From: Camellia lanceoleosa
Taxonomy: Eukaryota > Streptophyta > Magnoliopsida > Ericales > Theaceae
Reading direction: 5' to 3'
DNA: 64,000 nt
NCBI GenBank assembly: GCA_025200525.1
Contig: JANUSC010000052.1
Span: forward strand, 1,039,048 to 1,103,047
The notes beneath the pieces were generated by a model, which was not told the origin of the DNA, made no database searches, and worked only from the letters and a program-made list of their open reading frames with translations. This document shows, piece after piece, positions 11,423 to 31,950 of this stretch (within the stretch, counting starts at the first letter, position 1; every line of letters starts with the position of its first letter). The position numbers were made by a program, and so were the translations under genes.

Positions 11423-11435
11423 GTTTCCCCTCCTT
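11423..11435 (-). other. Polypurine tract of element B
   Basis: On the minus strand AAGGAGGGGAAAC lies directly before the start of the 3' LTR (TGTGACAACCC). This is the primer site for plus-strand DNA synthesis in LTR elements. The 3' end of the B reading frame (11436-11518) precedes it and continues in frame-like fashion from the chromodomain-like tail that is cut at 29307. Confidence 0.85.
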
Positions 11436-11518
11436 AAAAAGAGTTTGGTCCTCCAAACTCGAATTACCTTCATTTTGGAAGAATACAGGATTCAGAAGGA
11501 ACAGTTCAGGATACCATT

Positions 11519-12481
11519 TGTAAGACGAGCTAATCTGAGTTCGCTAAATTAATTAGGCCCAATAGCCCGAGATTGGTAGGGTCGAATTTATCGCAAGTCC
11601 AAGATTGGTGGGCCCGGATTAATCACCATCAAACGGGCCAAATCGTTCTAAGCGTCGAAAGGGTTCGGATCCACGAACCTATGGATCCGAAGCACTTGGC
11701 TTTAAACGGATTCAAACACAATCTAGGAACCGCTCCGTTAATGAGTCCCAAAACACTTGCGGGCGCGGAGCTTTCCGGGATCTACGCACCAGAACCATGG
11801 GCGTAATGGAGTTCGAACAAAGGACCCGATCCCGAAAACGGTGAGTGGGGATAAATTCACTCTTCGATTAAACTAGCCTATACCCGGGTCGAGGTGGCAC
11901 GACTCCGGGGGGTCCATGAGACTTGGCAATATTTAGCGGCGAGAGGGTCCTCTAGGACTACCTCGGCCCCTTGGGATGATTGGGGATCATTGGTTAGGTG
12001 TGGCTAAGAAGAAAGGTTCGCCGAGGGGTTGATCTCCTCTTTGGGGTTTTTCTCATCCTCGGAGAGGTCACCTCCTCGAACAAGGTGGTTAGAGAGAATA
12101 TTCCCCATGTGCCTTGCACATGGGCTCCATCCTACATCATGAGGTGCCTATAAATAGCACCCACCCACAGCTTTACAAGGGATGGATTTTGGAGATTTTT
12201 TAACTCTTGGGAAAGAACTGATTTCCCTTCTCCATTATCAACCTTGAGAGTGAAAGTGGGAGATCCATGGGAGAGCCTTGTCATTATTCTCTCTCTAGCT
12301 ACCTTGCCTTCTTCTTCACCCAATCTCTTATCTCCATCATCTCCTTTACTCTTGTGTTCTTAAGTTAAGACTATTGAAGAATCTAAGCCTTTCATTATCT
12401 TCTAGAGACTTCGAAATTTTTCTTCAAGGATCTTCAAAGATCTTCGAATTTTCTAACTACTTTCTTGAACCCTCTCATACA
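11519..12481 (+). repeat. 5' LTR of element A
   Basis: 963 bp, TGTAAGACGAGC to CCCTCTCATACA. It ends with the pair seen at the 3' LTR (CCCTCTCACACA). A candidate TATA element, CTATAAATAGC, lies at 12149-12159 and is conserved at the matching place in the 3' LTR (28969-28979), so U3-driven transcription would begin about 30 bp further on. The end of the LTR has AAGATCTTCGAA-type direct repeats (12428-12450). Confidence 0.93.
12149..12159 (+). promoter_or_regulatory. Candidate LTR promoter TATA box (element A)
   Basis: CTATAAATAGC within the LTR, conserved in the other LTR at 28969-28979. Position and sequence fit a Pol II TATA box for the retrotransposon transcript. There is no direct evidence of use. 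Confidence 0.65.
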
Positions 12482-12483
12482 TT

Positions 12484-12501
12484 TGGCGACTTCACTGGGG
12501 A
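12484..12501 (+). other. Primer binding site of element A
   Basis: TGGCGACTTCACTGGGGA, three bases after the LTR end. It does not match the initiator-Met class used by B. The form TGGCGACTNCACTGGGGA resembles the PBS reported for Tat/Ogre elements, attributed to tRNA-Arg; I cannot verify the tRNA here. Confidence 0.75.
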
Positions 12502-12523
12502 GGCGGATTGGTTAATGGTCTCA

Positions 12524-14349
12524 ATGAGATCTGGAATCCACACAACTCCAACAAGGATGGCGGGAGAAGATGAAGTTCACCAACAAAGATCCTCTAATGG
12601 TGGTGATGACAGGACCATGGCTCCAGATCAACCACTTTTGCTTGAGGCCATTCAAGGACTTCAAAATACTCAGCAGGAGATTCTTACCACTCTTCAAAAT
12701 CTCACTCACACCATGTTGGTGATGAGTTCTAATTTTACACCGGCGCTAAACCGAAATCAAACTGGTGGTGGAGTTATTCCCGCCGGAGCGCAAAATCAAA
12801 TCCAAGGAGAAGTAGGCCCCAATCAGCCTATAGCTCATGGCAACACGGCCACAGTAACACATGCTCAAACCGCAGTAGGCGACAGCAGTTTGCCCATGCC
12901 CGGGCTTCATGGTGTGCCAAGCCAAGATCCAATGGTGACTGGGGGAGGTTCTGGTGTAATGAATGGCGCTCCGACGACTATTGGTGTCCAGGAAAACATG
13001 AGGAGCATGATGGTGCAAAAGGGAGCTCTGCCCATACCTAATCTTGCTACGCCACCAGTAAATGTTACCCAAGCACCAAGCGGGTCTCCTTTCGTGCCGA
13101 CAACAAATTTGCAAGCACAACCCGGTATAGCGGTGCCGTGCAGTGGACTTTACGAGCCTCAATTCAATGTCCCATGACCAACTGGCTTGTCTATAGGCGC
13201 TGATGGCCAGTATCGTCAAATGTCCTCACCAATGATGAATTTATAGCACCAGAATGGCCAAGTCACCCCTAGCTCAGTCTTGGGGTCCATAAGCCAAGTT
13301 CTGGGAATACCAATATCAAACTCTCTCCCTCAACAATTTCTCACTCTCGCCGATGTGCAAGCCATGTTCGATCTCAAACAGGACCAGAGGACCTTACCCT
13401 CTTTGCCTGATCCGGATGTCAAGCCGCCTTACCCCATTGAAATGCTAAGCTATCCATACCCTAAGGGGTATACAATGCCGAAGTTCATCAAGTTCGATGG
13501 CAAGCAAGGAAATGCTCGAGAACATGTTGTGCGATTTATTAAGACTCTAGGTATTCATCATTCAAACCACGTCCTGCGGCTGAGAGAATTCTCTAAGTCC
13601 CTCACTGACCGAACATATAGTTGGTATGTTAATTTGGCCCCAAACTCTGTCCGAAGTTGGAGGAAATGGTTAACAAATTCCACTCTACGTTCTTTCAAGT
13701 GGCGAAGAAGGTGACCACACTTACATTGTGTAAAGAAAAGCAGCAGGAAAATGAAGACATCCTTGACTACGTCAAAAAGTTTCAGGACAAGGCCGTGGAT
13801 TGCCATGAAGCAGTGGAGGAGAGTTATCTGGTTCAAATCTGTCTAGAAGGGGCATTGAGCAGGTACAAAATGTTTCTAGTTAATCACAAGCTACCCACCT
13901 TCTCGGCATTAATAGAAACAGCTCGGAACATTAGCATTCCTCAGGCTCAGGAGTCCGGATTTAAGACCAGTTACAAGACTAGCTTCAAATCGTCTCGTGG
14001 ACCTATTGTTGCTGCTGTCTCTGCTCTAGATATCCGAAAGTCACAAGGAGGAGGTCATAAAGGCCAGAAGAGAAAGCAATATAATGGTGAAAAGGGGAAT
14101 GTTTCTTATCCATGTGGAATCGAGGAAGTAAAAGCTCTAGTTAAGGAATGGGTGGCCGACGGAAAGCTAAAATTGCCTTATGTCGAAGAAATGCCATCAA
14201 AAAAGGACCGTGAGAGCCCTGAATTTTGTGTCTACCATCGTACATTGAAACATCCGACAGAGAAGTGTTGGACTCTCAGGAAAATCTTCAGAGATAAAGT
14301 CGAGGCAGACGAATTGAGGTTCAAAAAACAAGGGAATCAAGATATCTGA
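12524..14349 (+). pseudogene. gag region of element A, frameshifted
   Basis: A Gag-like polyprotein in three pieces. The first piece continues to 13177 and is low-complexity, rich in P, Q, N, G and T. The second is 13280-13714 (ends in another frame) and the third 13657-14349. The second and third carry the retrotransposon Gag core: around 13480-13900 FDGKQGNA, then a segment of the YxWYxNL...W...FxxxF type typical of plant gypsy Gag, then KKFQDKAVDC. The third piece ends in a CVYHRTLKHPTEKCWTLR motif, a C-x2-H-x5-H-x4-C-like knuckle. Stops at about 13175 and a shift near 13660 break it. The first ATG of the long frame lies inside the LTR (12374), so the real start is probably one of the ATGs from 12524. 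Confidence 0.8.
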
Positions 14350-14394
14350 GAACAACCATATCCTCAGTACCGAGACAAGGGCAAGAATATTGCT

Positions 14395-15535
14395 ATGATA
14401 GCTTATGAAGGCCCGATGATTGAGGCTATCGCCAATCTCGATGACGATGATTATTATCTGGATGACATCCTCAAGCCCGAGGGTGAGCAAGTTTACTATG
14501 GAAGTGCTCTCGATCCAGAGGACAGAACCTTCATAACTCATGTCAACAATCCCTTTGATCTAGAAGGAGGAGAAGAGTACTACGAAAGAGGAGGACACCA
14601 TGTTTATGTGGCATCTTATTTTGAAGAGACCGAGGAGATGATTAACTACGAGCCTCCAAGAGTGGAAAAGGATCCGGATCACTATGCCAAAACCTTGCAA
14701 GACTGTGTAAAGTTCAAGCAATTCTTCGGCCAGCTTGGACTTTCCAGGGAGGCAAGAACAGAAATCACCAAGTCTATCATCAATATAGCTGAGGCTCACC
14801 ATGAGGAATACATGTCGACCGAGGGATCTATTCTGAGGAAGGCAAAAGAGCAATCTAGTGCCATTACTTTCTCTGAGACTGATCGGAAGTATCCCTTTTC
14901 TCACAACCGCCCGCTTTACGTGACTGCTTTTATTAACAGGGTTGAGTTCAAAAGGGCCTTTCTGGACAGCGGAGCCTCTATCAACATCATGACTCGCGCT
15001 ACTCTAGAAAAGGCCGGAATCCCTGAAGAGCACATTGCGAAACAGCCGATAGTCATCACTGGCTTCAGTGGAGAAATGAGAGTTACTATAGGATGTGTAA
15101 CAGTTGATTTAGCCGTCGGAGAGATTTGCTCAACCACCAAGTTCCATATTATCGACTCCGAGGCAAATTATCACATCATTCTAGGAAGGACCTGGATGCA
15201 TAGATATGAAATTGTACATGCCATCAAGTTATCATTAGTGTGTTAAGGCTAAATGGGGAAAGAAGACGGTGACAATTTAGGCTACAAAAAGGCCTTTCGA
15301 GACCCATAAAGCTCATTACTCTGATGCCATCTACTTCACCGAATTGGTTATCGAAGAAATTCCCACCACCTCTAAGCCTCGAGGGGTCAAAATTCCTCGT
15401 TGGGAGGATATCAAAGATGACAAGGAGCCAAGGGCAGAATCAAGTAAACGGGCGATCTCTAGACCAGAAAGTCCGCCTATTCCTCAGAAGGTGATGAAAG
15501 TCCGAGAAAGGGGCAAGATGGTGTACTATTTATGA
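14395..15535 (+). pseudogene. Protease region of element A
   Basis: An open frame at 14395-15246 encodes an acidic linker and then a retropepsin-like domain with active-site motif FLDSGASINIM (about 14960-14992). It is followed by VTGFSG-like strands and a C-terminal HIILGRTWMH that fits the ILG motif of retroviral-type proteases. After a stop at 15244, 15344-15535 is a low-complexity linker in another frame. The domain would process the Gag-Pol polyprotein. The catalytic Asp is retained but the polyprotein is interrupted on both sides. Confidence 0.85.
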
Positions 15536-15649
15536 AGGTGTGGGGAGTCGGTTTCTTCAGTCACCGACTCCGAGTCAAAAGAAGAGCCTCCTGACAATGA
15601 CATAGTGATAAAGCCTGAAGTGGCTCCAGAATGTATGCAAGATGGGCCA

Positions 15650-16980
15650 AAGCCTTAGCCGGAACAACTTATTGAAATAGATCTGAGTGATGGACAAGAT
15701 GCTTCAAGGCCGATATTCATAAGTTCAAGCCTTAGCCCAGAGAAGCGGGAACAGTTGTTAAAGTTGATAAGCCGGTATTCAGATGTGTTTGCTTGGTCAT
15801 ATAAGGAAATGCCCGGACTAGATCTTGACCTAGTCTCTCATTATCTTGATGTGTTCCCAAACTCCAAGCCAATTAAGCAAGCCGCTTGAAAATATCATCC
15901 AGATCTCGAAGAGAAGATTAAGGAGAAGATTGAAAAACTTCAACAGGCTGGTTTCATCCAGCCAATACAGTACCCCACGTGGTTGGCAAACATAGTGCCA
16001 GTAAAGAAGAAGAATGGTCAAATCAGAGTATGTGTAGACTTTCGAGATTTGAACAAATCTTGCCCGAAGGATGAATTCCCTCTACCTGACATCGATACCC
16101 TTGTGGATGCTACCTTGGGACACCAAATGTTCTCATTCATTGATGGATTCAGCGGATACAATCAGATTAAGATGGCTAAAGAGGACGCAGAATAGACTGC
16201 TTTTATAACACCTCTCGGAAACTTCTTCTATACAATCATGCCTTTCAGACTCAAGAATGCCGGAGCAATTTACCAAAGGACTATGACTGCAATCTTTCAT
16301 GACATGATCCATCATGAGGTGGAAGAGTATGTTGATGATCTAGTGGTGAAATCCAAGAAAGAAGAGGACCACCTCCGAGACCTTGAGAAAGTATTCAAGA
16401 GGTGCCAAAAATTCAAAATGAGAATGAATCCTCGCAAATGTGCTTTCGGGGTGACGGCCGGGAAGTTCCTCGGGTTTTTTGTACATAGGCATGGTATCTA
16501 GGCAGATGAAGACAAGGTCAAATCTATCAGAGCAATGCCTTCCCCGCATTCTCAGAAGGAGTTAAAGAAGTTCCTCGGGAAGATGTCTTATATTCAGAGG
16601 TTTATCCCAGCACTTGCAGAGATCTCTGCCCCTTTCGGCTCATTGTTAAATGGAGATGCCAAGTTCGAGTGGAACCAAGAGCACCAAAAGGCCTTCGAGA
16701 GAATCAAGGCGGCCTTGACCTCGCCTCAGACCATGATAGCCCAGAAGCCCGGGGTACCTTTAATGTTGTACCTAACCTCAACCCCCAAGTCCATAAGGGC
16801 ATTATTGGTCCAAGATGTAGACGGAGCAGAACGCCTGGTGTATTACATCAGCCGGAAGATTCGAGGAGCAGAAGTCCAATATACTCCAATAGAGAGACAT
16901 TGCTTAGCTTTGGTATTCACTGCCTAAAAGCTCAGACATTACTTCTTAGCACATCAGATTCAGATTGTTACTAGAAGTGA
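15650..16980 (+). pseudogene. Reverse transcriptase and first RNase H of element A
   Basis: RT motifs appear in order and in one frame but are cut by stops. They are KKNGQIRVCVDFRDLN, FPLPDIDTLVD, FSFIDGFSGYNQI (15983-16195), then FRLKNAGAIYQR and the catalytic YVDDLVVKS (YVDD at 16328-16339), with KCAFGVTAGKFLGF. A connection and first RNase H part follows at 16535-16927 (YISRKIRGAE, YTPIERHCLALVF). In-frame stops are TGA 15887, TAG 16193, TAG 16499 and TAA 16925. Most replace a residue whose usual codon differs by a single C-to-T or A-to-T change. The enzyme would copy the element RNA to DNA if whole. Confidence 0.92.
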
Positions 16981-17145
16981 TCCAATCCGATATCTCCTCA
17001 GCAAGCCTGCTCTAATCGGGAAGGTGGCAAGATGGTTGTTAGCACTAGGTGAATTCGAGAGACCACATGTGTAGCTCACAAGGCAATCAAAAGCCAAGCC
17101 TTAGCTGATCTCCTTGCTTAATTTCCAAGTGGTGACTATGAACCA

Positions 17146-17640
17146 GTGAATGAAGAATTAAGAGGAGAGGTGCATGCAACTATGGCTTCCAAGGAAAGCT
17201 TTTGGACATTGAGCTTTGACGGAGCAGCAGCCGGAGGGAAAGGAGGAACCGGGGTAGTTCTTACAATCAAAAGTGGGGAAAAGTTATATTTGTCTTATAA
17301 ACTGGATTTCCATTGTTCGAATAATGAAGCTGAGTATGAGGCTCTTATTTTAGGCTTGATAGCAGTTGAGAAGCACAGTATCAAGAAGATTCGGATTCGG
17401 GGGGACTCAAAGCTGATAGTGAAGCAAGTTTCAGGACAGTTCGCCTTAAAGGAGCCTGCTTTGGCCACATATCAAACAACAATCCAAAGGCTTCTTGATA
17501 AATTTCAGAAGGTCGAAATAGAGCATGTGCCTCGCTCTGACAAGAAGTTTTCAGATGCCCTCGCAACATTAGGGGCAAGAGTTGATAACCCAGAGGAGGA
17601 GGTGACAATTATTATCAAGAAGAGAACAGAGCCTTCAATA
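17146..17640 (+). pseudogene. Second (archaeal-like) RNase H of element A
   Basis: From residue 20 of the 17146-17961 frame comes WTLSFDGAAAGGKGGTGVVL, then NNEAEYEALILGL, RIRGDSKLIVKQV and HVPRSDKKFSDALATL. This is the D-E-D-D pattern of an RNase H domain with an ordered His/Asp end, separate from the first RNase H at 16535-16980. A second, archaeal-type RNase H is a published property of Tat-lineage elements. This domain is open along its whole length, unlike the others, but its place in a broken polyprotein leads me to list it as a pseudogene part. Confidence 0.85.
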
Positions 17641-19235
17641 ATACCCGAAGACAAAGACCTTCCGGAGGATTGGAGAGGAGAAGTCCTCGAACAACTCAGA
17701 AGCAAAGTTGGAAAACTGACTATGGCCAAGCTTGCCCAATTCATAATTATTCAAGGTGAACTTTACTTCCGAGGAGGTACCGGATTCCTAGCCCGGTGTG
17801 TTGGCCAACAAGAAGCAAGCTTCCAACTACAACAGATCCTTGAAAAGTCCTGCGAGGATGGGGATATCAGTCTGTACAGAAGAATCCAAAGACAAGGCTA
17901 TTATTGGCCTGAGATGGAGAAGGCCTCGAATCAACTACAGAAACAATGCCCCAAGTGTTAGTCATACATCCGGGAGGATGAGAGTTCCTTTGAAATTGAT
18001 ACCCCTGACTGAAGACAAGTCTACATTGACTATCTCAGATAAGGAACACTACCTGAGAGCCCGAGGGACATTGCACACCTCAAGAGGAGAGCGAGGCGAT
18101 ACTTTCTTGATTAGGACAAGCTTTACAGAAAAAGTATTGAGGGCACTCCCCTGAGGTGTCTCTCTAAGGAGGAGTCAGATCTAGTCCTCGGAAAAGCCCA
18201 CGAGATTGAACATCAAAGAGGGGGTCGGCTGTTCGAGCAACTTATACACCTTGGGTATTACTGGCCGACCATGGAGTCAGATGCGTCCTATCACATGAAG
18301 AGGTGCCAGACTTGTCAGAAACACGAAAATTTGATCCATGCTCCAGCCGTAGACCTGCATAGCATCTGAACGCCATGGCCGTTCCATACCTGGGCTTTTG
18401 ATTTGATAGGGCCCATTTCCACACCTTCTAAGGGATACAAGTGGATTCTCGCAGCTACAGAATTAAGCACAAAGTGGGTCGAAGCAATCCCTCTAAAAAA
18501 AGCTACGGGTCCTGCAGTTGCGAACTTCATCAAGGAAAATATCATTTGCCGGTTTGGAGTACCAAACACCATCCTCTCGGACAATGGCACTCCCTTCGTA
18601 AACAAATATGTGAAGAGCCTCCTAGAGACTTACCAAGTGAAGCATCACAAATCCACACCCTACTATCCAAAAGGGAACGGGCAAGCGGAGGCCACAAACA
18701 AGACACTGATAAGGATTCTGAGCAAGATGATGGATGAGTTTGGGGGGACTTGGTCCGAACAGTTGATAGTAGCCCTATGGACATATCGCACTTCAAAGAG
18801 AAAGCCAACTCAAGCAACTCCTTACTCCCTTGTGTATGGGTCCGAGGCAGTGTGACCTATAGAGTTGGAAACACCATCTGCTCAAATGGCTCTCGCCTCG
18901 GGGATGGTACTAGAGCCTCGAACCACCAGATTGAAAGCATTAGAGAAAAAGCATGACAGAGCTGCAAAAGTCATGGAAAGGTATCATGAGTCCATCGCCC
19001 GAGCCTATAATCAAACTGTGGTGCCAAGAAAGTTTGATGAAGGTGATCTAGTATGGAAGATTGTAGACCCAATCATGCGAGGACAACCCTTGCCCAAGTT
19101 TTCTCCAAAATGGAAAGGACCCTACAAGGTGGTTCAGGCAAGCTCAAGTGGGTACTATAAGCTTGTAAGGGTTGAAGATGGCTTCTGAACTGGCACGCTC
19201 AATGCAAAGTTTATCAAGCGTTACTACCCGTAATT
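17641..19235 (+). pseudogene. Integrase of element A
   Basis: Fragments in several frames. A first zinc-binding-like module ends RRIQRQGYYWPEM...CPKC (17870-17960) and a second ends LGYYWPTM...CQTCQKH (18250-18325). The DDE core follows at 18403-18855: FDLIGPISTPSKGYKW, LSDNGTPFVN, PYYPKGNGQAEATNKTL. The tail 18865-19188 includes KFSPKWKGPYKVV and ends near 19235 with a KFIKRYYP-like stretch. Stops at 17959, 18152, 18367 and 18853 interrupt it. The core Asp, Asp and Glu are in place. Confidence 0.88.
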
Positions 19236-19596
19236 AGACTCATCTATGTTGAAATTCATTTTCATTTTCTTACTTTGTCTAAAAGTTGTATTTTCCTTAC
19301 GTTATGAAGAAGCTGGTTTTCTTTATGATGTATGTTTATCTCATCACTTGCAATGAATATATTATACTTTTGTCAAGAAAGTTGAAAAATTAATGAGAAT
19401 ATTTCAGCTTTTATAAACATGTGCATGTGATTATTCTTTCTATTGTATCATTCGAAATAAATATTTTATCAAGTAGAATGAGAAAACAATGCGAAAATAT
19501 CCAAACAGCAGAGATTTTGTCATTTCATTTCATTGTCCTAGATAAAACTTTTCTACCGAAAGGGGCAAGAAAGTAATGATAAAAAAAAAAAAAAAC
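19236..19596. other. Non-coding spacer between pol and the antisense gene
   Basis: AT-rich, no ORF. It has a short A run at 19579-19593. On the minus strand this would be the 3' end of the antisense gene; I see no clear AATAAA on that strand within it. Confidence 0.5.
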
Positions 19597-22500
19597 TCAA
19601 TCTCTCCTAAAAACACCCTCGAAGAAGCTGCCCGTCACATCTACATCCAGAGGACAAACAGCAAAGTGTGCCTCTAAAGTCTCCAAGGTCCGAGCATAGC
19701 CTGACTCAAGTTCACGAAGAGTTGCCTTTGTCTCATCTATAGTGGTCCGATAAGAGGCAAGCACAGACAAAATTTCCTCCCGATGACTGGCATTCGAAGC
19801 TACATCCAGGCGCTTCTGAAGCCATGATAAATCCACTTGGTGACGCTCCATGTCAGAGATCCCCTGATACGCTGTCTCGACTACTTTCCCATTAAGGTCA
19901 CACAGTCGTTGCCTGTCCAAGCTATATAAGATAGTGGCAAAAGACTCAAGAAGAGCAGTCTGAATGAGCGGACATTGGCAAGCAAATGAAGCAAAGGTCT
20001 CCGGATAACTCGAATGCACAAGCTGTAGAACTGAAGCAAACTCAGGAGCTACCCAATAATGGAGAAGTGATACTTTGCCAGAAGCCGAAGGAGGAATTGG
20101 GGCCGGAAAGCTACTAGTCTCAGGAATCTCCCGAATGTCTATCGAGTTAGATGAACCACCTAGAAGGGTAACTTCTGGTGGAGGTCCTGAGCCCGAGAAT
20201 GCAAGGCGATAAGGAGAAAGACCAAAAGCATCACTATCAAAGTGGAAATCGCTGAGATTCAAATCCAAAACATTCGAAGGAGCTGGCGATGAAGAACCTC
20301 TAGCAATCGTCTCAAAGGCAGGTGTCTCCCCTTGAGAAAGAGAACCACGAGGAGTCACAAAGAGAGTCAGAGCAGAGTCCGAGGCAGGTGAAGGCAGGAC
20401 CCCGGTGGCAGCTAACACTGAAGAAAAGATAAGGAAGTCTTATTAGGGGTGAGGAACAGTAAAGCCATTTGAGTGAAGATTTCTCACAGATAGAAGTACA
20501 TGACAAACTTCAGAAAGAAAGATTACCAGAGGGACCTCTAGCAGTCGTCTCAAAGGCAGGTGTCTCCCCTTGAGAAGGAGAACCATGAGGAGTCACAAAG
20601 AGAGTCGGAGCAGAGTCCGAGGCAGGTGAAAGCAGGACCCCGGTGGCAGCTAACACTGAAGAAAAAATAAAGAAGTCTTACTAGGGGCGGGGAACAGTAA
20701 AGCTATTTGAGTAAAGATTTCTCATAGATAGAAGTACATGACAAACTTCAGAAAGAAAGATTACCAGAAGGAGAATCATTATGTAAAGCCGGAGCAACTG
20801 AAGAGTATCAACAAAGTCACTTGGCCGTACAGAGGGCACTTGATCGATCTGAATGTCTAATGAAGCCTGAACAGTAGCAGTCATCCCTGAAGAAGGAAGG
20901 AGGGCCGGAGGATGAGAATCACCATAAGTGCCAGAGCAAGTCTCATAAATTTCTAGCACATCCACCTCCACACCATTCCCAGAGGCGCACCTCATCTCTA
21001 TATTGCTTCTACAAGCACGGCCTGCGACATCAATTTCTGTGGCATCTATCTCTTCAGCAATCTCAATATCAGAATGGCGAGCCCCGACAACCTCGCCACC
21101 AAGATAGCGCTCCTCCTCAGTTACGATAGGATAGTGATAACGCATGCGCAGGATAAGGTCACAAAAATGATCGGAGGACTCAGCCTCATCATCATCATTA
21201 TCTATAACCGCTATACGAGGGGTGCGCATCTTCACAAGTCTTGCAGACAAATGGAGGGTGTCGTCCAAGTCTGAATCCGGCCTAGTGAAGGAAGCATGGC
21301 CAGTAGCCACGGTACTGAGAACGTCAGTAGCCATAGGGTCCTACACAATAGAGGGAAAATAAAAAGTGTTCATTTAAAAAAGTCTAGTCGCAAGAAAGAG
21401 AGTAACTTCAAAAGAAAAAAAAAAAAATTCGAGTACCTCATGAAGCCTTTTGAAAAGGCAAGGAGCGGAAGGACTGGCATCAGAAGCCCTCTTGTGATCC
21501 ATCTTCTTAAGGCGGGTCGTCCAAGGACCAGAGGCCTTATTCAAAGGGACTGGCTCTGGAGAAGCAATTGCCAAGCTAAAAGTAGACACTCGAGCCGGAG
21601 GGTCAGTTAGAGCAGATGAAATAAAGAAACTCTCGTACATGTGATCAGATTTCCAGCTCTCAGGCAGCCGAAGAGAAGATTCCTTCTTATAGATCGGCGG
21701 AGGCAAACATATGGTCGGTCTGCTCTGGAAAAATGCAATAAATGCATCGATATTCTTCCGCCAATATCGCCTGAAAGAAGGGGTGAAACCCCCTACTCGG
21801 CTCAAGCTTGGCATCGTCAAAGAGCCGGATATAGGAAGCATGGTGTGTACAAGCTCACGACTGAAGCACCCATAGCTCTCCAAAAATGATAATAAATGAG
21901 GTACTGGCCCCGGGGCACGTTGATCAAACCCGAATTGACATGCTACACGGTCAGGTCTATATATGGCACTATCAACGCCTTCTTCATGCCATATTGGTAG
22001 CGAACCGGGACGGATCATTATCAGCATATCAACAAAGTATGCAGGGATGTTCTTCGGCAAAGGAAATGACACCGAGCGGGAGGAACCATGATAAATAAGT
22101 GGTGTTGCCACACCCACTGATGGGCATACATACGGCCGTGCCACAAAGCGACGGGGATCGTCCACCAGAGTATTCAAGGATAAGGTAAAAATGGTACGTG
22201 GCCAATGTTTAATCAACGGCTAGCAAGACTTTGCTTTCTCAAATGTCTGAGACCCATCAATACTGAGCACGGGGATACCATCTTTATCCACTATCTCCCG
22301 AAGAACCTCTGCCTGAAATATAGTCGGAGTGGGGGCAAACTTTGGGAACCTCTCGAAGAAGAAACAAAGCAGGAACTGGCTGTGAATGAAGGAGACAGGC
22401 TCATATCGACCCACGGAACGAACCATGTCTCGATGTAGTAGATCCAGTCGGTAATAAAGATTCCCAAGAAATAACGAAGCCAAAGGAATCCAATCCCCTC

Positions 22501-23412
22501 TAAAGAGCCTAACTGCCAAGGGGAAGACGAAGGGATTGAGAGAATCCGGAGGTGTGCTCAGAAGAATGAAAAATAAAAGGAAGCAAGCCAGAAATCCCAG
22601 GAAATAAAGCCTAGAGCCATACATCGGGCCAGCCTCATACTCCCGAGAATTAGGGTCAGCATCTTTAGCCAAGGGCTGAAGATCCTTGAAGAAGTGGCGG
22701 ATCCATGCGGTATAGGAGGCGCGGTCCGTCCTTACTCGACTGATCCTCCTCGCTGAACCATCAAATACAGAACTCCATCGGCCATAAACTTAAAGATTTA
22801 GCTTCAGAGATTGGATCAAGGAATCATCCTCGGGGGGTGTCCGCTCAGGGTAGAAGGCATCAAGGCCAGTCACTTCTAGACGCAGTAGCATGAACACATC
22901 CTCGAGAGTGGGCCCCATCTCATGCTGGCCAAGTATGAAGGTGGGTGTCTCGGTGCTCCACCGAAGAGCCATGGCTTCAAGGCTGGCATTGTTGCGACGG
23001 ATGGATAGGGATCAAGATATTTTCATCGGGATCAATAGCCGGGCCTCCTGAAGCCGATGACAGAGGCTCCTGTCCTAGAGGACATCATTGACCCACTCCT
23101 GCCAACCAAAAGGAGGGTTTGAGAAGGCCTTGAACTGAGGATAGCAGTATGCAAAGTCCCTTCGCTCAATCCTAAAGCGTAACACCGAAGAAGAAGAAAT
23201 AAGGGCCTCATGTCCAGAGTCAGTGTCCTTAATGAGACATAATGGAGCTCCCTTCGGAGCCAGAAGAGAAGTGGTGGAGGTAGCCGCCACAGGAAGGGTC
23301 CTTCACCAAAATAAGGAGATTTCCTTCACTCGGATCTGGAAGGTACATTCCTCTCTTTCATGAGAGCCGGTTCTGATGACCCCGGGACAACAGGTTTCTT
23401 TCGAGAAGACAT
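19597..23412 (-). pseudogene. Antisense plant-mobile-domain (PMD) gene inside element A
   Basis: A spliced, decayed gene opposite to the retrotransposon. It probably starts at ATG 23412 (MSSRKKPVVPGSS), with a shift to the main frame near 23310. The main exon runs 23300-21437 in one frame with stops at 23072, 23012, 22787 and 22217. It contains ALRWSTETPTFILGQ, MGPTLEDVFMLLRL, FPLAVRLF and YRPDRVACQFGFDQ, which match the aminotransferase-like plant mobile domain. Predicted introns are 21436-21341 (GTACTC...GTGTAG), 20764-20656 and 20526-20418 (both GTAATC...TTCAG). Exons are 21340-20765, 20655-20527 and 20417-19597. The last exon ends in a helical, coiled-coil-like region (DMERHQVDLSWLQKRLDVA). 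PMD proteins are host chromatin or silencing factors (MAIL1, MAIN) and are often captured by transposons. The function here is unknown. Confidence 0.8.
20289..20764 (-). repeat. 238-bp exon-intron tandem duplication in the antisense gene
   Basis: Two adjacent copies, 20527-20764 and 20289-20526, each consist of a 129-nt exon segment and a 109-nt intron. The exon (43 codons) is a multiple of three, so the duplication keeps the frame. The encoded segments read VLAATGVL(L/P)SPASDSA(P/L)TLF and onward. Differences between the copies are few, so the duplication is younger than the gene. Confidence 0.85.
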
Positions 23413-25449
23413 ATGGCTGAAATAACAGGGATAAATAGCAAGGAGTTAACCGTATTAAAATTTAGAATATTGGAATTAAAACAACACATTCGAATGAAAT
23501 TTCGTCATCAACAATTCATTTTCTCGGGTATTTTTCAAGCTCAACAAATTACAGTACCAATGGGTGTATCATCAACATACAGATTTCAAGTTTCTATCAT
23601 CAATAGGAGGTGCAATGTCATAGCCGTTTTATGATGAAGTTCAAGCAAGTCATTTTCTTAAAATCACTACGTTCTATTTTAAAGATCCAATTTATACAGG
23701 GCTCAAAATTTGGATAGAGTGAAGTTCAATAGCAAATTTTAGGCCCAAGATCTGAAGTATTTTACATTTCTCATCAGTAGCAAGATTCAATGGGTCGTTA
23801 TACAAATTACAAGAATGTCCTTTCTAAAGTCCATGTTCATAAGCCCAGGGTTTTCTCTCTCTATGTCAAAAATGGAGCTCCATGCTAGTCAACAAGTTAT
23901 ATTTGGCCTTTTCTCAGTGATAAAGTTCAACAAATTATATTCAAGCCAAGCCCCTCAATAAGGTTTCAAGTGCCACTGCATATTTCAATATGGCCAAAAT
24001 CACAGTGCTTGAGTTTAAAAAAAAATGTTATTGGGATTTCAGATTTTTTTTTTTTTTTTTTTTTTTTGAAATAAGACTTTTCACAAAAATTGCCCAAAAA
24101 TATATATATATATATTTATATATATACAAGAGGAAGAGGGAGCCGAATTTCATACTCACAAATTTGGGCAGTTAGAGGGGTGAAGTCCGAAGCCGATGTT
24201 GGAAATTAAAGCTGAAATCAAAGAGGCTTTACAAACTGTAATCAACAAGACTGAGCTAGGCTAGGCAAGACCACACACGTTGCGTTGAGCGGGAGAACGT
24301 GCATGGTCGGCGTTGGACAAGTTGAGGCCGGAGGCAACAATGGTGTCGGAAAGAAGTTGGCAACCACCCACGTCGCGTTAAGTGGGCAATGGGTGTGGTC
24401 GATCTTTGGAATAAGCGAAGCCGATGACGAAATTGCAACAGAGCAACCCTAACCGTGTTCAACGGTGGACGACCAAGGTGGGCGACATGGATTACAGCAG
24501 AGAAAGCCAATAATGGTAAAACACCGATGGTGAGGTGGGGAATCGGCGTCCGCAGTGTCATTGCGGTGGCGTCATAGAGGAAGACGTCATGATGTGGCTC
24601 GCAAAAAGTGGAGTTCACGAATTCAAAATGTATCAGAGCATGGATTCATTTTTTTAAGCACAGAAGTTCATTAAAATAATAAGAGAGAATGGGTTTTTCA
24701 CAAAAAGCTTTCACCAAAATTTAAAAAAAAAAAAATTGAAAATGCTAACCCACTGGTCTGAGAAAGCAAAGCGCAGATGCAAAGCAAGCAACAATGATCA
24801 AGAAAGAGATGGCAAGTATTATAATACAAAGCTGAACGATGTTAGGCAGGACCACACACGGCGTTGAGTGGGCAAGCGTCGTGGTCGGCGTTGACGGCGA
24901 GTCGGAACCCGGTGATGTCGCGCGAGTTGGTGACCACACATGACGCGCGTTGAAAGGGCGGCGTGTGTGGTTAGCCTTGAGCAACAAGCGGCGTCGGTGT
25001 TGGTCGATTGAGGCGGCAATGGTAGTAGGGCCACGGAGGATTCGGTGTTGGCTTGACAACGTTGTCACAACACCGATAGTAGCGAGGTTGTAGCCGCCAA
25101 CCATGCAAGATGACGCCGACGAATGAGCGAGAGCTTGGTCAAAGTTGGGACGGTGATGGTGGGTTGCAATGCTAGGACAAGTCGATTGGCAGATGCGTGG
25201 CGTCTTTAGTAGTCGAAGTTGGGTCTTGATGGCAGCGGCGGCAATGGAGACCGGAGTTGCGATGAAGGTCGGTCGTAAGCGGAGCCATGTGGTTTATTGA
25301 AGAAGGAGAACAGGCGTGGCCTCTGGCGATGTAAAGCAAGCCTTCTTGAAGAAGAAGAAACTTGGCCTCTCGGTCTAGAGAGAGAGACCGCATAGCGGCT
25401 ATGCAACAAAAAAGAATGATGGAGCTCTGAGAATAGGGCTTTGCCCTTT
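23413..25449 (-). other. Possible leader and promoter region of the antisense gene
   Basis: No continuous ORF. On the minus strand, GC-rich blocks at 25430-24745 and 24620-24250 hold minor open frames (24256-24618, 24745-25104, 25172-25393) and four related words (GCCC-ACTCAACGC...GTGTGTGGTC). A donor-like CAGTGG|GTTAGC lies at about 24750. Between and after the blocks are AT-rich tracts: T runs at 24046-24067, (TA)n at 24101-24124. I read it as 5' exons and introns of the antisense gene, but the exon structure is not established. Confidence 0.45.
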
Positions 25450-25460
25450 CCTTAAATAGA
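25450..25460 (-). promoter_or_regulatory. Candidate TATA box for the antisense gene
   Basis: On the minus strand TCTATTTAAGG, followed 25-60 bp later by CT-rich sequence and the GC-rich leader block. It suits a Pol II core promoter within element A but is a sequence-only call. Confidence 0.4.
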
Positions 25461-25869
25461 AAAAAAGGGGAGCATTATCCATTGAATATGCCCTCGGAAT
25501 ATTTCTAAATATGTATGTATATGTAATTGGTCTGCTGTGTGTGCCAAACAACAAAAAAGTGTGAGCCTTGTGTGCTATTTGTTAAGAATGTAAAGAAAGT
25601 GGGTGCTTTGTTATTATTCGCTTGGATTAAATATATATATATATATATATGAATATGTATATTTTCTCAGATGTTAAAAAAAAATACAAATATCAGTGGC
25701 ACGAAAAAAAAAATTTAAATGTATATGAGTAAAAAAAATTTTTTTTTTTTGCTTTGACAAATTTTATCCATAAATTATCGTGTGTCATCAACTTTATCCA
25801 TAGGCTCTGTCGGGATAACATTTTTTTTTGGGACGTGATCTGGCGAGAAATTTGAAAAATAAGATCGCA
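25461..25869. other. AT-rich 3' region of element A before solo LTR D
   Basis: It contains (TA)n at 25629-25650 and T runs near 25740. No gene is seen. Confidence 0.6.
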
Positions 25870-28245
25870 TGTCACGACCCCAAACCCGCCCCTATGGGTT
25901 CAGTACCGTAACTGGCCAGTAACCCTAGGTTACCGAAGGCCTGCTTAACAGTAATACAATAATACAGAGTACAAGGGCTTAGCGGAAGCCAATACAGTAA
26001 ATAAACAATGTCCAATGAGCTATGACAGTCTGTATGCCAAAAGATTTTCATACATTTACACAGAACAGTATGTAAAACAATTACAAACATTGATCTGAGG
26101 ATCAAGTCCTATTAACCCGTGATGCGATCTATCTGATATATCTGATATTACAAAAGCGATGCGGAAGGAATTGCTAAAACACCCCTAAGCCTTAGCTTGG
26201 TAGGCTCGGAACCTCGCAGTAAGGCACATTGGTTGGCTTGACAAAACTGGAGTTAACCTCGACGCCTCTAGCTTTGATCCGGTGCCTGTACACCTACATA
26301 TATATATATAAGCAGTGAGCTAAGCCCAGTGAATAACATAATGCATAAAGGGGATTAGAATGAATGTCCTTACAGTAATGAAAACAGTTCATTTCAATCA
26401 GTATGTCAGTTGTTCAGTACAATAAACAGTCATATATGGTACATCCATTAGCATAACGATGAAATGATGAGGTCTTAAAAGACGAGCGATAATGATGGCC
26501 ATCAATCGGTAAATAGTAGTGGTCCCACGAGGAAGCGAAGATCTCTACTTGATAACGATGCAGTAGGTGCTAAGGATGCCACAGTGTAGTTCAGAATATA
26601 GGACATACATTCATTCGATGCGATATCGATTCGATGCTTGATTCGATTCGATATTGAAGATAATCATTTTGAACATATCTTTACACAATTGTTACTTATA
26701 GAGTTACGGGCTCTGATGAACTAGAGCGTCTCCTCGGAATGCCAACCCTATACAGTTAACAGATTGAACACACGCTAAGCTTCACAGTTGGGAAAGATAA
26801 CAACTTAATCCATAAATTTGCCTCGGTGTGTTCTATATCTATATCCTCTTTAAGATGTCTTAAACTAGGCCTAAGAATGTCTAGGATGGAATGAGGATGC
26901 AAGGATGTGCCTGACGATTTTAGAATTTCGATTAACGATTTCCGCTCGGCGCGAGTTTCCCTTTCGGCGAACGAAGTAAACAAAGTCCCCTTCGGCGGCA
27001 AAATCCTCGCTCGAGTGTACCAAAAAGTACTGGATAGGTGAAATCTCCGCTCGACGCCCGCTCGAGCGTGTCACCCAGTCCTTCGCTCCAGCCCAACATC
27101 CTCCCCTCAAGCGGGTGATGTCTGATGCAAGATCTTTGGGAGCTCGATTTTCCGCTCAGCGGCACTTCGGCGTCTGACCAAAATCTGGAAATTCTAGATT
27201 TGAGTTCCAAGTTTAAAACTCAAGTTTGATGCTCCAAATCCAATCCTTTTGGGCCAATTTTCTGGAAAACTCTTGTAAACACATAATATTACATGATTTT
27301 AAAGCTCACTTGTAAAATCAAGGCCCAAGGGTGTTTCAAACAAACCTAATTCAAACCAAATTTTCATGAACATGCATGAGCATGCTACAAAGTGACATGC
27401 ATGTGATTAAATCAAATCAAAGCTCCCATTTCATGCACAAATGGGCTCATTCTTCCAAATTCAAGACGAAAACATGGTCCTTAACACTAACATGAACATG
27501 CATGTGAGAAATGAAGGATTGTAACCTCAAAACTTAGCAATATGCACATGCATGCAACAATTGAGCTTCAATATAACATTACAAACCATAAATTGGCTCT
27601 AGACTTCAACTTAGCTCTAAATCATGCAAGGGTCTAACAAAATTACAAGCAAAAGGGTAGTTATTCTACCTTAGGTCTTGAATTAGAGGTGTAGGAGCTC
27701 AAATATGCAATTACTCTTCCAAATCTCCAAGTCTCCAAGCAATTCTCAAGAAGAAACTCAATTTCTCTCTCACTAGCTCTCTTGGTCAGCAATAACAATG
27801 AAATAAGGCTGAGGAAATGTTTGTTGAGTGTAAGGAAGTTCAAGTATGGTCCAAGATAATGGCCCACTAGTGGTGGCAAAAAGGTAATTAGCCTAACTCA
27901 TGAAATTTGCACAATTCAATCTAATTTAATCCGGTTTAATCATACTAAATCATCTTTCAATTAAGTTTACCATAAAATCACATAAATTCTACTGATCATG
28001 GAACATCAATCAATTTTGGATTCGGCCGCCGATAAGGCCTTCAATTAATAGTTTAAACATAAGAACTAAACAGATAATTAAACAGTCAAACAGATAAAAT
28101 GCAATTCAAACAGATCTGAGCGATCAATTGATTCGGATCTCGATCGATCGATTCGATATTTGATCAATTCAATTATCAGTCTTAATTTAGCAATAATCGG
28201 TAATTAATCAGTCATTAATCGGTAAACAGTGTGAAGGTTGTTACA
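25870..28245 (-). mobile_element. Solo LTR D, chromovirus relative, inside element A
   Basis: 2376 bp from TGTCACGACCC to GGTTGTTACA on the plus strand. It aligns with the LTRs of B but is more diverged, including a degenerate CGCTCGAGCG cluster at 26940-27165. Neighbouring A sequence continues on both sides (to the PPT at 28281). The 5-bp flanks TCGCA (25865-25869) and ATGCA (28246-28250) match at three positions. The longer word GCATG also occurs at both junctions, so the TSD is not clean. Confidence 0.85.
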
Positions 28246-28280
28246 ATGCATGTCTGAGAAATTTAAAATTTCTCATACAC

Positions 28281-28292
28281 GCAAGGGGCAAA
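28281..28292 (+). other. Polypurine tract of element A
   Basis: GCAAGGGGCAAA, purine-rich and immediately before the 3' LTR start TGTAAGAGG. Confidence 0.75.
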
Positions 28293-29301
28293 TGTAAGAG
28301 GAGCTAATCTGAGTCCGCTAAGTTAATTAGGCCCAATAGCCCGAGATTGGTAGGCCCGAATTTATTGCTAGTCCAAGATTGTTGGGCCCGGATTAATCAC
28401 CATCAAACGGGCCGAATCGTTCTAAGTCTCGAAAGGGTTCGGATCCATGAACTTAGAGACTTACTCCGGCTCGACTCGAAAGGGTTCAGATCCACGAACC
28501 TAGAGATCTGAAGCTCTTGGCTTCAAATGGATTCAAGCACAATCTAGGAGCCGCTCCGTTAATGAGTCCCAGAACACTTGCGGGCTCGGAGCTTTCCGAG
28601 ATCTACACACCAGAACCATGGGTGTAATGGAGTTCGAACAAAGGACCCGATCCCGAAGACGGTGAATGGGGATAAATTCACTCTTCGGTTAAACTAGCCT
28701 ATACCCGGGTCGAAGTGGCACGACTCCGGGGGGTCCATGAGACTCGGCAATATTTAGCGGTGAGAGGGTCCTCTAGGACTACCTCGGCCCCTTGGGATGA
28801 TTGGGGATCATTAGTTAGGTGTGGCTAAGAAGAAGGGTTCGCCGAGGGGTTGATCTCCTCTTCGGGGTTTTTCTCATCCTCGGAGAGGTCACCTCCTCAG
28901 ACAAGGTGGTTAGAGAGAATATTCCCCATGTGCCTTGCACATGGGCTCCATCCTACATCATAAGGTGCCTATAAATAGCACCCACCCATAGCTTTACAAG
29001 GATGGATTTTGGAGATTTTTTAACTCTTGGGAAAGAACTGATTTCCCTTCTCCATTATCAACCTTGAGAGTGAAAGTGAGAGATCCATGGAAGAGCCTTG
29101 CCATTATTCTCTCTCTAGCTACCTTGCCTTCTTCTTCACCCAATCTCTTATCTCCATCATCTCCTTTACTCTTGTGTTCTTAAGTTGAGACTATTGAAGA
29201 ATCTAAGCCTCTCATTATCTTCTAGAGAATTCGAAGTTGTTCTTCAAGGATCTTCGAAGATCTTTGAATTTTCTAACTACTTTCTTGAACCCTCTCACAC
29301 A
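28293..29301 (+). repeat. 3' LTR of element A
   Basis: 1009 bp, the same orientation and sequence as 11519-12481 apart from scattered substitutions. A ~47-bp tandem duplication (about 28431-28477, CGAAAGGGTTCGGATCC repeated) explains the greater length. Confidence 0.93.
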
Positions 29302-30890
29302 CCGTTTCATATATCGTCTTCCCTTTCCCAAGTGACATAAACGCCATCATGGTTTTGCCAGTCTACTTTTACTAACGGAATCTCTTTATTCCTCAACTTC
29401 TTGATTCGTCGGTTTACAATCTGAATAGGCCGTTCTTCATAAGTGTAGTCATCACTTAGCACTACGGGTAGGCTCAATAATATGGAAGGGATCTCAAGAT
29501 AATCCCTCAACATTGAAATATGGAAGACGTTATGCATATGCTCAATCTTAGGAGGAAGCGCTACTTGATACGCCACTAGATTAATCTTTTCAATGATCTC
29601 ATACGGTCCGACATATCTCGGTGCTAACTTACCCTTGACTCCAAAGCGAGTCTAGCCTTTCATTGGTGTCACTCTAACAAAAACATGATCACCCACTTCA
29701 TATTCCCTGTCTCACCTTCGGACATCCACATAACTTTTCTGTCGACTTTGTGCGGTTTTCAATCTCTGTTGAATCAGTTTCACATTTTCTATGGTCTCCT
29801 ATACAATCTTGGGCCCAAGCAAAGGCCCATCTCCAACTTCTGCCCAGCAAATAGGAGATCGACATTTTCTGCTATATAAGGCCTTGAAAAGCGCCATACC
29901 AATGCTTGAGTGAAAATTGTTGTTGTAGGCAAATTTAGCTAAAGGTAAATGGCTTTCCCAATTTCCTTGGAAATCAAGGACACACATACGCAGTAAATCT
30001 TCCAGAGTCTGGATTGTTTTCTCTGACTTGCCATCTATTTGAGGATGGTATGCACTACTCAGTCTCAATTCGGTACCCAATGCAGTTTGCAGACTTTGCC
30101 AAAATCTCGATGTGAACTTCGAGTCCCTATCAAAAACAATGGACACAGGCACTCCATGCAACCTAACAATCTCATCAATATAAATTGTAGCCAATTTGTC
30201 CGCATTATAAATTGTTTTGACAGGTAAGAAGTGAGCAAATTTAGTCAATCTATCAACAATAACCCAAATTGAGTCCATACCTTTACTAGAGTGAGGTAAT
30301 CCAACAATGAAATCCATAGTAATATGTTCCCATTTCCACTCCGGTATTGGCAAAGGTTGAAGTAAGCCTGCGGGTCGTTGATGTTTGGCTTTGACTTGTT
30401 GACAATGTAGGCATTTCGATACAAACTCTGCAATTTCTTTCTTCATTCCCGGCCACCAGAAATTAAGTTTCAAGTCTTGGTACATTTTTGTATTTCCTGG
30501 GTGGATGGAAAGTTTTGAATTGTGGCCTTCCTGTAAAATTCGTCTTTTTAGTTTAGAATCATTCGGTACACACAACCTTTCTTGAAACTTCAATACATTA
30601 TTTTCAAATTTAAAGTCCGGCCTCGATTTAGATTCCCGTTCATCAATGACCTTCTTCAAGAAGTCATCTAGGTGTTGTTTATCTTTAATGTCCTCAATAA
30701 GTGCCGGTTGAGCAGAAATAGCAGCTAATGTTCCACCTTGTTCACGCAAAACAAACTCAACTTTGAGTTTTTCAAGATCACATAGTAGTTCTTTCTGTCC
30801 AATAAGTAAATAGGCTAAATTCCCAATTGATTTTTGACTCAGTGCATCAGCAACGGTGTTAGCTTTTCCTGGATGGTACAAGATTTGCAA
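29302..30890 (-). pseudogene. Integrase and chromodomain-like tail of element B
   Basis: The 30890-29799 frame starts in the end of RNase H (HPGKANTVADALS), then has an H-H-C-C zinc domain (HPGNTKMYQDLKLNFWWPGM...CLHCQQVK) and the DDE core (MDFIVGLPHSSKG, FDRDSKFTS, YHPQIDGKSEKTIQTLE). A stop at 29799 separates it from 29576-29307 (KIEHMHNVFHISMLRDY, IQIVNRRIKKLRNKEIPLVK, VDWQNHDGVYVTWERED), which resembles the chromodomain-type tail of chromoviruses. The tail ends at the A insertion, and its last residues continue on the far side (11518-11436). It would insert element DNA, with the tail directing it to chromatin. Confidence 0.9.
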
Positions 30891-30914
30891 GTCATAGTCT
30901 TTTATCAGTTCTAA

Positions 30915-31950
30915 CCATCTCAGTTACCTCATGTTTAATTCTTTCTGCGTAAAGAAATACTTTAAGCTCTTGTGATCTGTGTACACCTCACATGTTGCCC
31001 CATAAAGGTAGTGGCGCCAAATTTTCAATGCAAAAACCACTGCAGCAAGTTCTAAATCATAAGTGGGGTAGTTTTTTTCATGTGGCCTCAGTTGTCGGGA
31101 AGCATACGCAATAACTTTACCATTCTGCATTAAAACACATTCCAAACCTTTATAAGAAGTATCACTGAAAATAGTAAATCCATCCGTACCTGAGGGTAGG
31201 GTAAGAATTAGTCTTGATCAAGTTGAGTCTTTAGTTCTGGCTTGATTCCCTTTGGTCAATCCAGTCAAATGATATTCTTTTTTGAGTCAACTGAGTCAAT
31301 GCTAGGGCAATTTTGGAGAAGTCTTTCACAAACCTTCTGTAGTACCCGGCTAAACCCAAGAAACTCCGGACTTCAATAACATTAGTCGGTCAGGGCCAAT
31401 TTACCACTACTTCAATTTTTTGCGGGTCCACTGTAATGCCATCCTTACTAATCACATATCCCAAAAATATAACATTATCAAGCCAAAATTCACACTTTGT
31501 CAATTTAGCATACAGTTTCTGTTCTCTTAAGGTCTGTAAGGCAATTCTCAAATGACGTTCATGTTCTTCTTTACTCTTGGAATAAATCAAAATGTTATCT
31601 ATAAAAACAACCACAAATTCATCGATGAATGGTTTGAAAATTCGGTTCATAAGGTCCATAAATGCAACAGGCGCATTAGTAACTCCGAAAGGCATAACAA
31701 GAAATTCATAATGTCCATACCTCATTCGGAAGGCAGTCTTTTCAATGTCCTCTGGTTTGACTTTCAGCTGGTGGTATCCGGATCTAAGGTCAATTTTGGA
31801 GAAAACCTAGGCACCTTGTAACTGGTCAAACAAATCATCAATACGAGGAAATGGATATTTGTTTTTCACTGTTACCTTATTGTATTCACGGTAGTCAATG
31901 CAGAGTCTTAATGAGCCATCTTTCTTTTTCACAAATAAAACTGGTGCGTC
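30915..31950 (-). pseudogene. Reverse transcriptase and RNase H of element B
   Basis: RT motifs [20 protein letters not shown] and [15 protein letters not shown] (31945-31750), then [20 protein letters not shown] and [14 protein letters not shown] (31725-31390), then RNase H with [24 protein letters not shown] and [10 protein letters not shown] (31145-30924). The catalytic FIDD is FIDN: codon AAC at 31594-31596 in place of Asp. Stops at 31948, 31808 and 31390, and between 31390 and 31145, separate the parts. Inactive as it stands. Confidence 0.9.

What the first reader, a model, noticed from the sequence alone, without database searches (positions are those of the whole stretch)
19597..25460. 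Spliced antisense PMD gene carried inside a Tat-lineage retrotransposon
Opposite to pol of element A lies a gene whose main exon keeps one frame for about 1.86 kb (with four stops) and holds PMD landmarks such as YRPDRVACQFGFDQ and MGPTLEDVFMLLRL. Three GT-AG introns fit exactly on the minus strand. An antisense gene would keep introns through retrotransposition, because they are not spliced from the sense genomic RNA. Antisense ORFs after pol are known in Tat elements (Grande), and PMD genes are known to be captured by transposons. A spliced PMD gene with its own leader as cargo here deserves attention: it could have interfered with host silencing (inference).
Basis: partly seen in the sequence, partly recalled or inferred. 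Interest (0 to 1): 0.85.

Follow-up and report, generated by a model that had tools for sequence, protein, structure and literature searches.

The report
Retrotransposon's spliced antisense accessory gene
A tea-plant jumping element carries, on its opposite strand, an old and intron-containing gene of a known plant family, and copies across the genome show the gene was kept working while the element spread; the gene family is known, but its split structure and evidence of selection are useful new detail.

Summary
The minus strand between pol and the 3' LTR of a 17.8-kb Tat-type Ty3/gypsy element (11519-29301) carries a decayed PMD (PF10536) gene with three exact GT-AG introns. In the host genome (3.0 Gb, Camellia-like) capped searches list 73 such PMD loci; 32 of the 40 best integrase hits, window included, have PMD on the opposite strand downstream, 28 at 2.1-3.1 kb. 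So it is a standing part of the family, not a later host insertion. Variants shared by 3 or more copies are mostly synonymous in the PMD exon (134 S:93 N) while singletons are not (127:330; OR 3.7, p 4e-15), as in integrase; leader intron and intergenic gap show no such excess. The antisense protein was therefore under purifying selection while the element multiplied. A public tea protein (1096 aa) shows the same splice junctions. Relatives are multi-copy in Rhododendron; four other PMDs of this genome are only distantly alike (21-35%, low scores), so this is an old gypsy-borne clade (probably PMD-A), not a fresh capture. PMD in Gypsy elements and antisense ORFs in Tat elements are published; what may be new is the spliced antisense gene with measured selection. 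Interference with silencing is untested.

The parts
11519..12481 (+). 5' LTR of element A (TG...CA)
   Evidence: self-alignment with 28293-29301; K2P 0.054 over 964 sites
28293..29301 (+). 3' LTR of element A; 5-bp flanks CCATT / CCGTT (4 of 5 alike)
13633..15243 (+). gag-protease region (Asp_protease E 2.3e-7; the piece 13633-14346 has no Pfam match)
15890..16924 (+). reverse transcriptase and RNase H (RVT_1, RT_RNaseH_2), broken by stops
17122..17580 (+). additional RNase H (RVT_3, E 3.3e-21) between RNase H and integrase
18124..19211 (+). integrase (H2C2 E 2e-7, rve E 6.9e-14)
25447..25460 (-). TATA-like box of the antisense gene, followed by a GGGC / CCCTA stretch
   Evidence: box found in 17 of 21 copies, on the sense strand of none
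23417..25420 (-). 5' leader of the antisense gene with a probable leader intron (acceptor AG at 23418-23417; the start and the donor near 24747 are inferred)
   Evidence: acceptor AG in 20 of 21 copies; donor not tested
21437..23416 (-). main exon: ATG at 23412, N-terminal part and PMD domain
21341..21436 (-). intron 1, 96 nt, GT-AG, phase 0
   Evidence: donor GT 21 of 21, acceptor AG in place 19 of 21
20765..21340 (-). exon coding the acidic linker; frame kept open in the copies but no synonymous excess
20656..20764 (-). intron 2, 109 nt, GT-AG, phase 1
   Evidence: donor GT 20 of 21; an acceptor of this type in 19 of 21, L015 showing one of the two expected
20527..20655 (-). duplicated symmetrical exon, 129 nt
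   Evidence: 238-bp tandem copy 20291-20772
20418..20526 (-). intron 3, 109 nt, GT-AG
19597..20417 (-). last exon: C-terminal helical part, stop at 19599-19597
   Evidence: in the public relative residues 941-1070 are modelled mostly as helix at 62-82 pLDDT per block of ten
25869..28243 (.). solo LTR of another family nested between the gene's leader and the 3' LTR (ends approximate)

Best explanation
This is a decayed copy of a Tat-type (Ogre/Retand-like) Ty3/gypsy retrotransposon whose standing gene set includes an antisense accessory gene for an approximately 1,100-residue protein: N-terminal part, plant mobile domain, acidic linker, C-terminal helical domain. Most likely working: the antisense gene is read from its own TATA-type promoter just inside the 3' LTR, its introns are removed, and the protein works in trans for the element, probably in the nucleus on transcription or chromatin. 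The introns persist because transposition goes through the sense RNA, in which they are not recognised as introns. Shown: architecture, presence through the family, splice-site conservation, agreement with a public gene model, purifying selection on the PMD and C-terminal exons. Inferred: transcription, the promoter, nuclear action, the benefit to the element.
For: PMD matches. Of 20 fetched copies, 20 have the PMD and N-terminal parts, 17 have integrase in place and 14 the 3' LTR within the 10 kb read. Of the 40 best integrase hits (window included) 32 have opposite-strand PMD downstream, 28 at 2.1-3.1 kb. Shared against singleton variants S:N 134:93 against 127:330 in the PMD exon, 33:28 against 50:118 in the last exon, 23:11 against 35:64 in integrase; no such excess in the leader intron or the gap. 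The PMD result holds without the two duplicate insertions, for variants in 4 or more copies and for transversions only, and with stop gains counted as N. ATG in 21 of 21, intron 1 donor in 21 of 21. Public tea protein P0001 joins LHE to DP at the same junction. The N-terminal, PMD and C-terminal parts align with long Rhododendron proteins.
Against: No RNA data were seen, so transcription and splicing are not shown. The linker exon shows no synonymous excess in its open frame (22:61 against 57:129). Its two other frames, which are full of stops, give nominal p of 0.02 and 0.07, so p near 0.02 means little in this test. The promoter comparison used copies chosen for holding the box, so its peak of identity is partly built in. 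Four of 21 copies lack the box. 8 of 40 integrase hits had no PMD in the capped lists. The structure model is poor (mean pLDDT 37.7) and gives no function.
Confidence: 0.8

Rival explanations
1. A host PMD gene (or a MULE-borne one) was inserted into, or captured by, one element copy recently; what is seen is a passenger.
For: PMD genes are captured by MULEs (PMC5418596, passages read), and a MULE-borne PMD exists in this genome (L031, MULE transposase E 4.8e-16).
Against: The gene is at the same place in independent copies. It is 21% identical to the host-like PMD L036 and 27-35% over short stretches to three other PMDs of the genome, at 30-54 bits, against 335-359 bits to multi-copy Rhododendron proteins.
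Confidence: 0.03
2. Only the antisense RNA matters: it pairs with the genomic RNA and feeds small-RNA silencing or self-limitation, and the reading frame is a relic.
For: Such a role of antisense transcripts is discussed for plant LTR elements (PMC7264820). In tea, 175 PHAS loci giving 21-nt phased siRNAs lie at PMD genes (PMC10673657, passages read).
Against: The frame-specific synonymous excess in the PMD and C-terminal exons needs a protein. It was not tested whether those PHAS loci belong to this family rather than to MULE-borne or genic PMDs.
Confidence: 0.1
3. The host uses the antisense gene as a handle: phased siRNAs made from the PMD transcript act on the element's sense RNA, while the protein itself is the element's accessory factor. 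Both are true at once.
For: Published PHAS loci at tea PMD genes together with the selection shown here.
Confidence: 0.2

Closest known systems
Gypsy-encoded PMD-A clade (Ikeda et al. 2017, PMC5418596; passages read)
   Same: PMD encoded by a Ty3/gypsy element, distant from the other PMDs of the same genome that were compared
   Different: Clade membership could not be tested against reference sequences; the word antisense does not occur in that paper's main text, and the passages read do not mention introns
Tat/Ogre extra ORFs with PMD (Neumann et al. 2019, PMC6317226; sections 9 and 13 and passages read)
   Same: PMD in an extra ORF of a Tat-type element (57% of Ogre); second RNase H between RNase H and integrase
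   Different: That survey took ORFs of at least 250 codons, so a spliced gene would be seen in part only. The spacer of about 274 bp between protease and RT ORFs is not evident here. Orientation of its PMD ORFs was not seen by me
Antisense aORFs of Retand and Grande (Vicient 2025, PMC11963269, abstract, background and passages; Vicient and Casacuberta 2020, PMC7264820, parts 1 and 2 of 3)
   Same: [quoted passage not shown] Grande gene23 is reported to have its own upstream promoter
   Different: Those carry TRP28 or other domains; no PF04195 match here. The word intron does not occur in the Vicient 2025 main text
MULE-captured PMD (PMC5418596; passages)
   Same: PMD carried by a transposon
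   Different: DNA transposon; 29% identity over 68 residues to the one tested here (L031)

Membership tests
PMD (PF10536) | Profile match above the curated cut-off | tested here: met
   94 and 100.6 bits in two less decayed copies; the window's own pieces stay below it at 24 and 18.1 bits
Tat lineage of Ty3/gypsy | Additional RNase H; in Ogre and Retand between RNase H and integrase | tested here: met
   RT_RNaseH_2, then RVT_3, then H2C2 and rve; rule from PMC6317226
Ogre subclade | Gag-protease and RT ORFs separated by about 274 bp, spliced | tested here: inconclusive
   Protease and RT frames abut around 15.24-15.26 kb in this broken copy; other copies were not read there and no RT tree was made
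Ogre subclade | PMD extra ORF (reported in 57% of elements) | tested here: met
   not exclusive enough to settle the subclade
Retand subclade | Antisense TRP28 (PF04195) ORF (reported in 97% of recently active clusters) | tested here: not met
   No PF04195 match in the five antisense ORFs of the window (E up to 1) or in two copies' main exons and one last exon
PMD-A clade | Groups with Gypsy-encoded reference PMDs, apart from PMD-B and PMD-C | tested here: inconclusive
   Apart from one host-like and three other PMDs of the genome; no reference PMD-A, B or C sequences were at hand
[quoted passage not shown]
   32 of 40 integrase hits; 20 fetched copies
Antisense accessory gene (aORF-3R) | Transcribed from its own promoter | not testable with these tools
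   Only a conserved TATA-like box; no RNA data
Anti-silencing factor | Relieves host silencing | not tested
   Seen in print only as speculation for MULE-captured PMD

The most novel reading that the evidence does not exclude
Gypsy elements have kept, since before the split of tea and rhododendron, a spliced antisense gene whose PMD protein counters or redirects the host's own PMD-based silencing (MAIN/MAIL), and the host in turn makes phased siRNAs from that antisense transcript. It would be an arms race within one protein family, written on both strands of one element.
Probability: 0.12. Interest if true: 0.8.

Novelty: new variant of a known kind. Interest (0 to 1): 0.42.

Why it matters
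Antisense ORFs of plant LTR elements have no known function. A frame-specific selection test on about 20 copies says this one coded a protein that the element's spread depended on, about as strongly as integrase by the same measure. ORF-based surveys see genes cut by introns only in part, so such genes may be under-counted. A gypsy-borne PMD under selection bears on the open question of how the host's PMD silencing proteins and transposon PMDs are related.

Tried and rejected
Rejected: recent host-gene capture. Rejected: non-autonomous derivatives in L017 and L020; integrase lies 21 kb from L017's PMD and 5.8 kb from L020's, so other DNA separates them. L016 is 97% identical to L017 over 9.9 kb and its contig ends before the expected place of integrase, which was therefore not seen. 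Rejected: chance antisense ORF; the other five frames have 0.035-0.064 stops per codon against 0.0047, and the one opposite-strand frame with a synonymous excess shares third positions and is not open. Treated as noise: DUF4403 and PEARLI-4 matches, both below the curated cut-off. Led nowhere: structure (mean pLDDT 37.7), hence no fold search; sequence search of solved structures (none; six, best E 0.044, over linker, coiled or short stretches). The first codon test used a wrong frame for the PMD exon and integrase end and was redone. Not done: RT tree, RNA mapping, donor of the leader intron, tRNA of the primer site, Pfam on the ORFs of L032-L035.

Full report
What is there. Element A runs from 11519 to 29301 in a window of a 3.0-Gb genome; the best public protein matches are from Camellia sinensis, so the host is probably tea or a close relative (inference). 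Its LTRs differ by 50 substitutions in 964 aligned sites (K2P 0.054). With recalled rates of 6.5e-9 to 1.3e-8 per site and year that is 2-4 million years. The sense strand carries protease, RT, RNase H, a second RNase H, integrase zinc finger and integrase core in that order, with stops and frame changes along it. Neumann et al. 2019 (PMC6317226, section 13 read) give a second RNase H between RNase H and integrase as the mark of Ogre and Retand within Tat. The subclade stays open: PMD points to Ogre, but the spacer between protease and RT expected for Ogre is not evident.

The antisense gene. From the ATG at 23412 on the minus strand the main exon runs to 21437; introns are 21436-21341, 20764-20656 and 20526-20418; the last exon stops at 19599-19597. 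This copy has four stops in the long frame and changes frame near the start and in the linker. Intron 1 has donor GT in 21 of 21 aligned copies and the acceptor AG in place in 19 of 21; the leader acceptor AG is in 20 of 21 and the ATG in 21 of 21. At intron 2 the donor GT is in 20 of 21; an acceptor of this type is seen in 19 of 21, and L015, which has the duplication, shows one of the two expected. With copies about 10% apart such conservation alone is weak evidence; the frame statistics below and the public model carry more weight. Two pairs among the 21 are the same insertion: window and L011 share the nested solo LTR, L016 and L017 share flanks, so about 19 are independent. The public tea protein P0001 (1096 aa) reads across the same junctions (LHE joined to DP, and SPS joined to VLAATG). 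It is a gene model and may not rest on RNA. The 238-bp tandem duplication (129-nt symmetrical exon plus 109-nt intron) adds 43 codons without changing frame; 6 of 21 aligned copies have the longer form by length.

Is it cargo? A DNA search with the PMD exon scored 40 of 197 candidates; apart from the window itself they are 87-96% identical. All 20 have the PMD and N-terminal parts; 17 have integrase and 14 the 3' LTR within the 10 kb read. A protein search scored 65 of 1904 candidates. The union of both lists, leaving out four second fragments and merging starts within 3 kb, is 73 distinct PMD loci, the window included; both lists are capped. Of the 40 scored integrase hits (of 441 candidates, window included), 32 have PMD on the opposite strand downstream within 60 kb: 28 at 2.1-3.1 kb, the rest at 5.6, 5.8, 21 and 56 kb, the last perhaps unrelated. 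One of 40 has a same-strand PMD within 60 kb. Eight have none listed, which may reflect the capped lists. As a contrast, five PMD loci of other kinds (L031-L035) showed no match to element A's gag-pol pieces within their 9.9 kb.

Was it a working gene? Variants found in three or more copies arose mostly in the spreading lineage, singletons mostly after insertion (inference on which the test rests). In the PMD main exon (20 rows, L020 left out for low coverage) shared changes fall 57/53/129 on codon positions 1/2/3 and singletons 171/154/146; S:N without stop gains is 134:93 against 127:330 (OR 3.74, p 3.9e-15), with stop gains as N OR 3.63. The last exon gives 33:28 against 50:118 (p 0.001), the short N-terminal piece 8:4 against 6:20 (p 0.014), the integrase core 23:11 against 35:64 (p 0.0013), its end 15:6 against 20:37 (p 0.0053). 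The leader intron and the gap between pol and the gene show no excess in any of three frames (smallest p 0.17). Without L011 and L017 the PMD result is 118:81 against 134:362, OR 3.94; for variants in four or more copies OR 5.85; for transversions only OR 4.48, p 0.003. The true frame has 0.0047 stops per codon, the other five 0.035-0.064. Against a uniform picture: the linker exon keeps its frame open (0.004 stops per codon against 0.058 and 0.109) yet shows no synonymous excess there (22:61 against 57:129, p 0.56; 16:59 against 61:138, p 0.13, without the duplicates), while its two closed frames give nominal p of 0.07 and 0.02, or 0.035 and 0.008 without the duplicates. So this test has false signals at that level, far from the PMD value, but the N-terminal piece should not be leaned on. 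Two of the 20 rows have no in-frame stop in the long frame. I take the PMD result as strong evidence that the antisense protein was kept by selection, with a fast-changing linker.

Promoter. A box TTCTATTTAAGGAAA or close variants lies upstream of the gene in 17 of 21 copies and on the sense strand of none of those stretches. In 15 aligned copies the 20-bp block with the box averages 0.86 identity against 0.13-0.83 in the other blocks, but these copies were chosen for having the box. The following CCCTA-rich stretch resembles plant telo-box promoter motifs (recalled). Grande gene23 is reported to use its own upstream promoter (PMC7264820, read).

Where it belongs. In a tree of 21 PMD proteins the element's protein falls with P0001 and P0003, then near Rhododendron and Vaccinium, then Cornus and Liquidambar, outside which lie one host-like PMD and, further off, three other PMDs of the genome. 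The tool warned of long branches, so only the broad split is used. By BLAST the element protein is 21% identical to the host-like one, 27-35% to the other three over 68-142 residues (30-37 bits), and 35-37% to Rhododendron relatives (335-359 bits). The long Rhododendron proteins align in their C-terminal part too. R. griersonianum alone has 14 listed protein clusters. Whether these lie in gypsy elements was not checked. Ikeda et al. 2017 (PMC5418596, passages) report PMD-A1 and A2 as exclusively Gypsy-encoded and leave open whether gene or transposon came first. That fits, though I had no reference sequences to test it.

What is known and what is not. PMD in Gypsy elements is published (PMC6317226; PMC9289625, section 12 read; Steinbauerova 2011, not held, known from citations and recall). 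Antisense ORFs after pol are published for Grande, RIRE2 and Retand (PMC7264820, PMC11963269). Vicient and Casacuberta 2020 ask for a look at antisense and spliced transcripts. My searches (open-access papers only, capped listings) showed no paper whose title or abstract start describes an intron-bearing antisense PMD gene in an LTR element; I did not read most of the listed papers. Tea PMD genes are reported as 175 PHAS loci (PMC10673657, passages); whether they include this family is not known to me.

Verdict. A real and formerly functional spliced antisense PMD gene, present through the element family: a variant of a known kind with good evidence of selection. Its role in silencing is conjecture.

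Noticed in passing
window 6846-7474: Tandem array of a 30-nt unit, 16 registered positions, readable as a repeated peptide; no Pfam match for 6874-7440.
   Followed up: partly
window 9013-11437 and 33965-36355: 2.4-kb LTRs, 93% alike, of a minus-strand Ty3 element (integrase 29802-30923, protease 31954-33015); element A is nested in it.
   Followed up: partly
window 25869-28243 and 62197-64000: Related LTRs: a solo LTR nested in element A, and another copy at the window's end.
   Followed up: partly
window 38737-43524: Copia element with 93% alike LTRs (RVT_2, integrase).
   Followed up: partly
window 53031-53753: ORF of 241 aa with a weak endonuclease/exonuclease/phosphatase match (E 1.7e-7), perhaps part of a LINE.
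   Followed up: no
L011 and the window: 95% identity over 10 kb including the nested solo LTR: the window's 1.1-Mb contig is probably an alternative haplotype or a duplication of a stretch of contig C2. L016 and L017 form a similar pair.
   Followed up: partly
L031: MULE transposase (PF10551) beside a PMD gene scoring 178 bits: a second, DNA-transposon-borne PMD kind in the same genome.
   Followed up: partly
window 20291-20772: In-frame tandem duplication of a symmetrical exon with its intron inside a transposon-borne gene, present in 6 of 21 aligned copies by length.
   Followed up: yes
window 20765-21340: The linker exon keeps its frame open across copies while shared changes lean to amino-acid changes (16:59 against 61:138, p 0.13); fast or adaptive change is possible but not shown.
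   Followed up: partly
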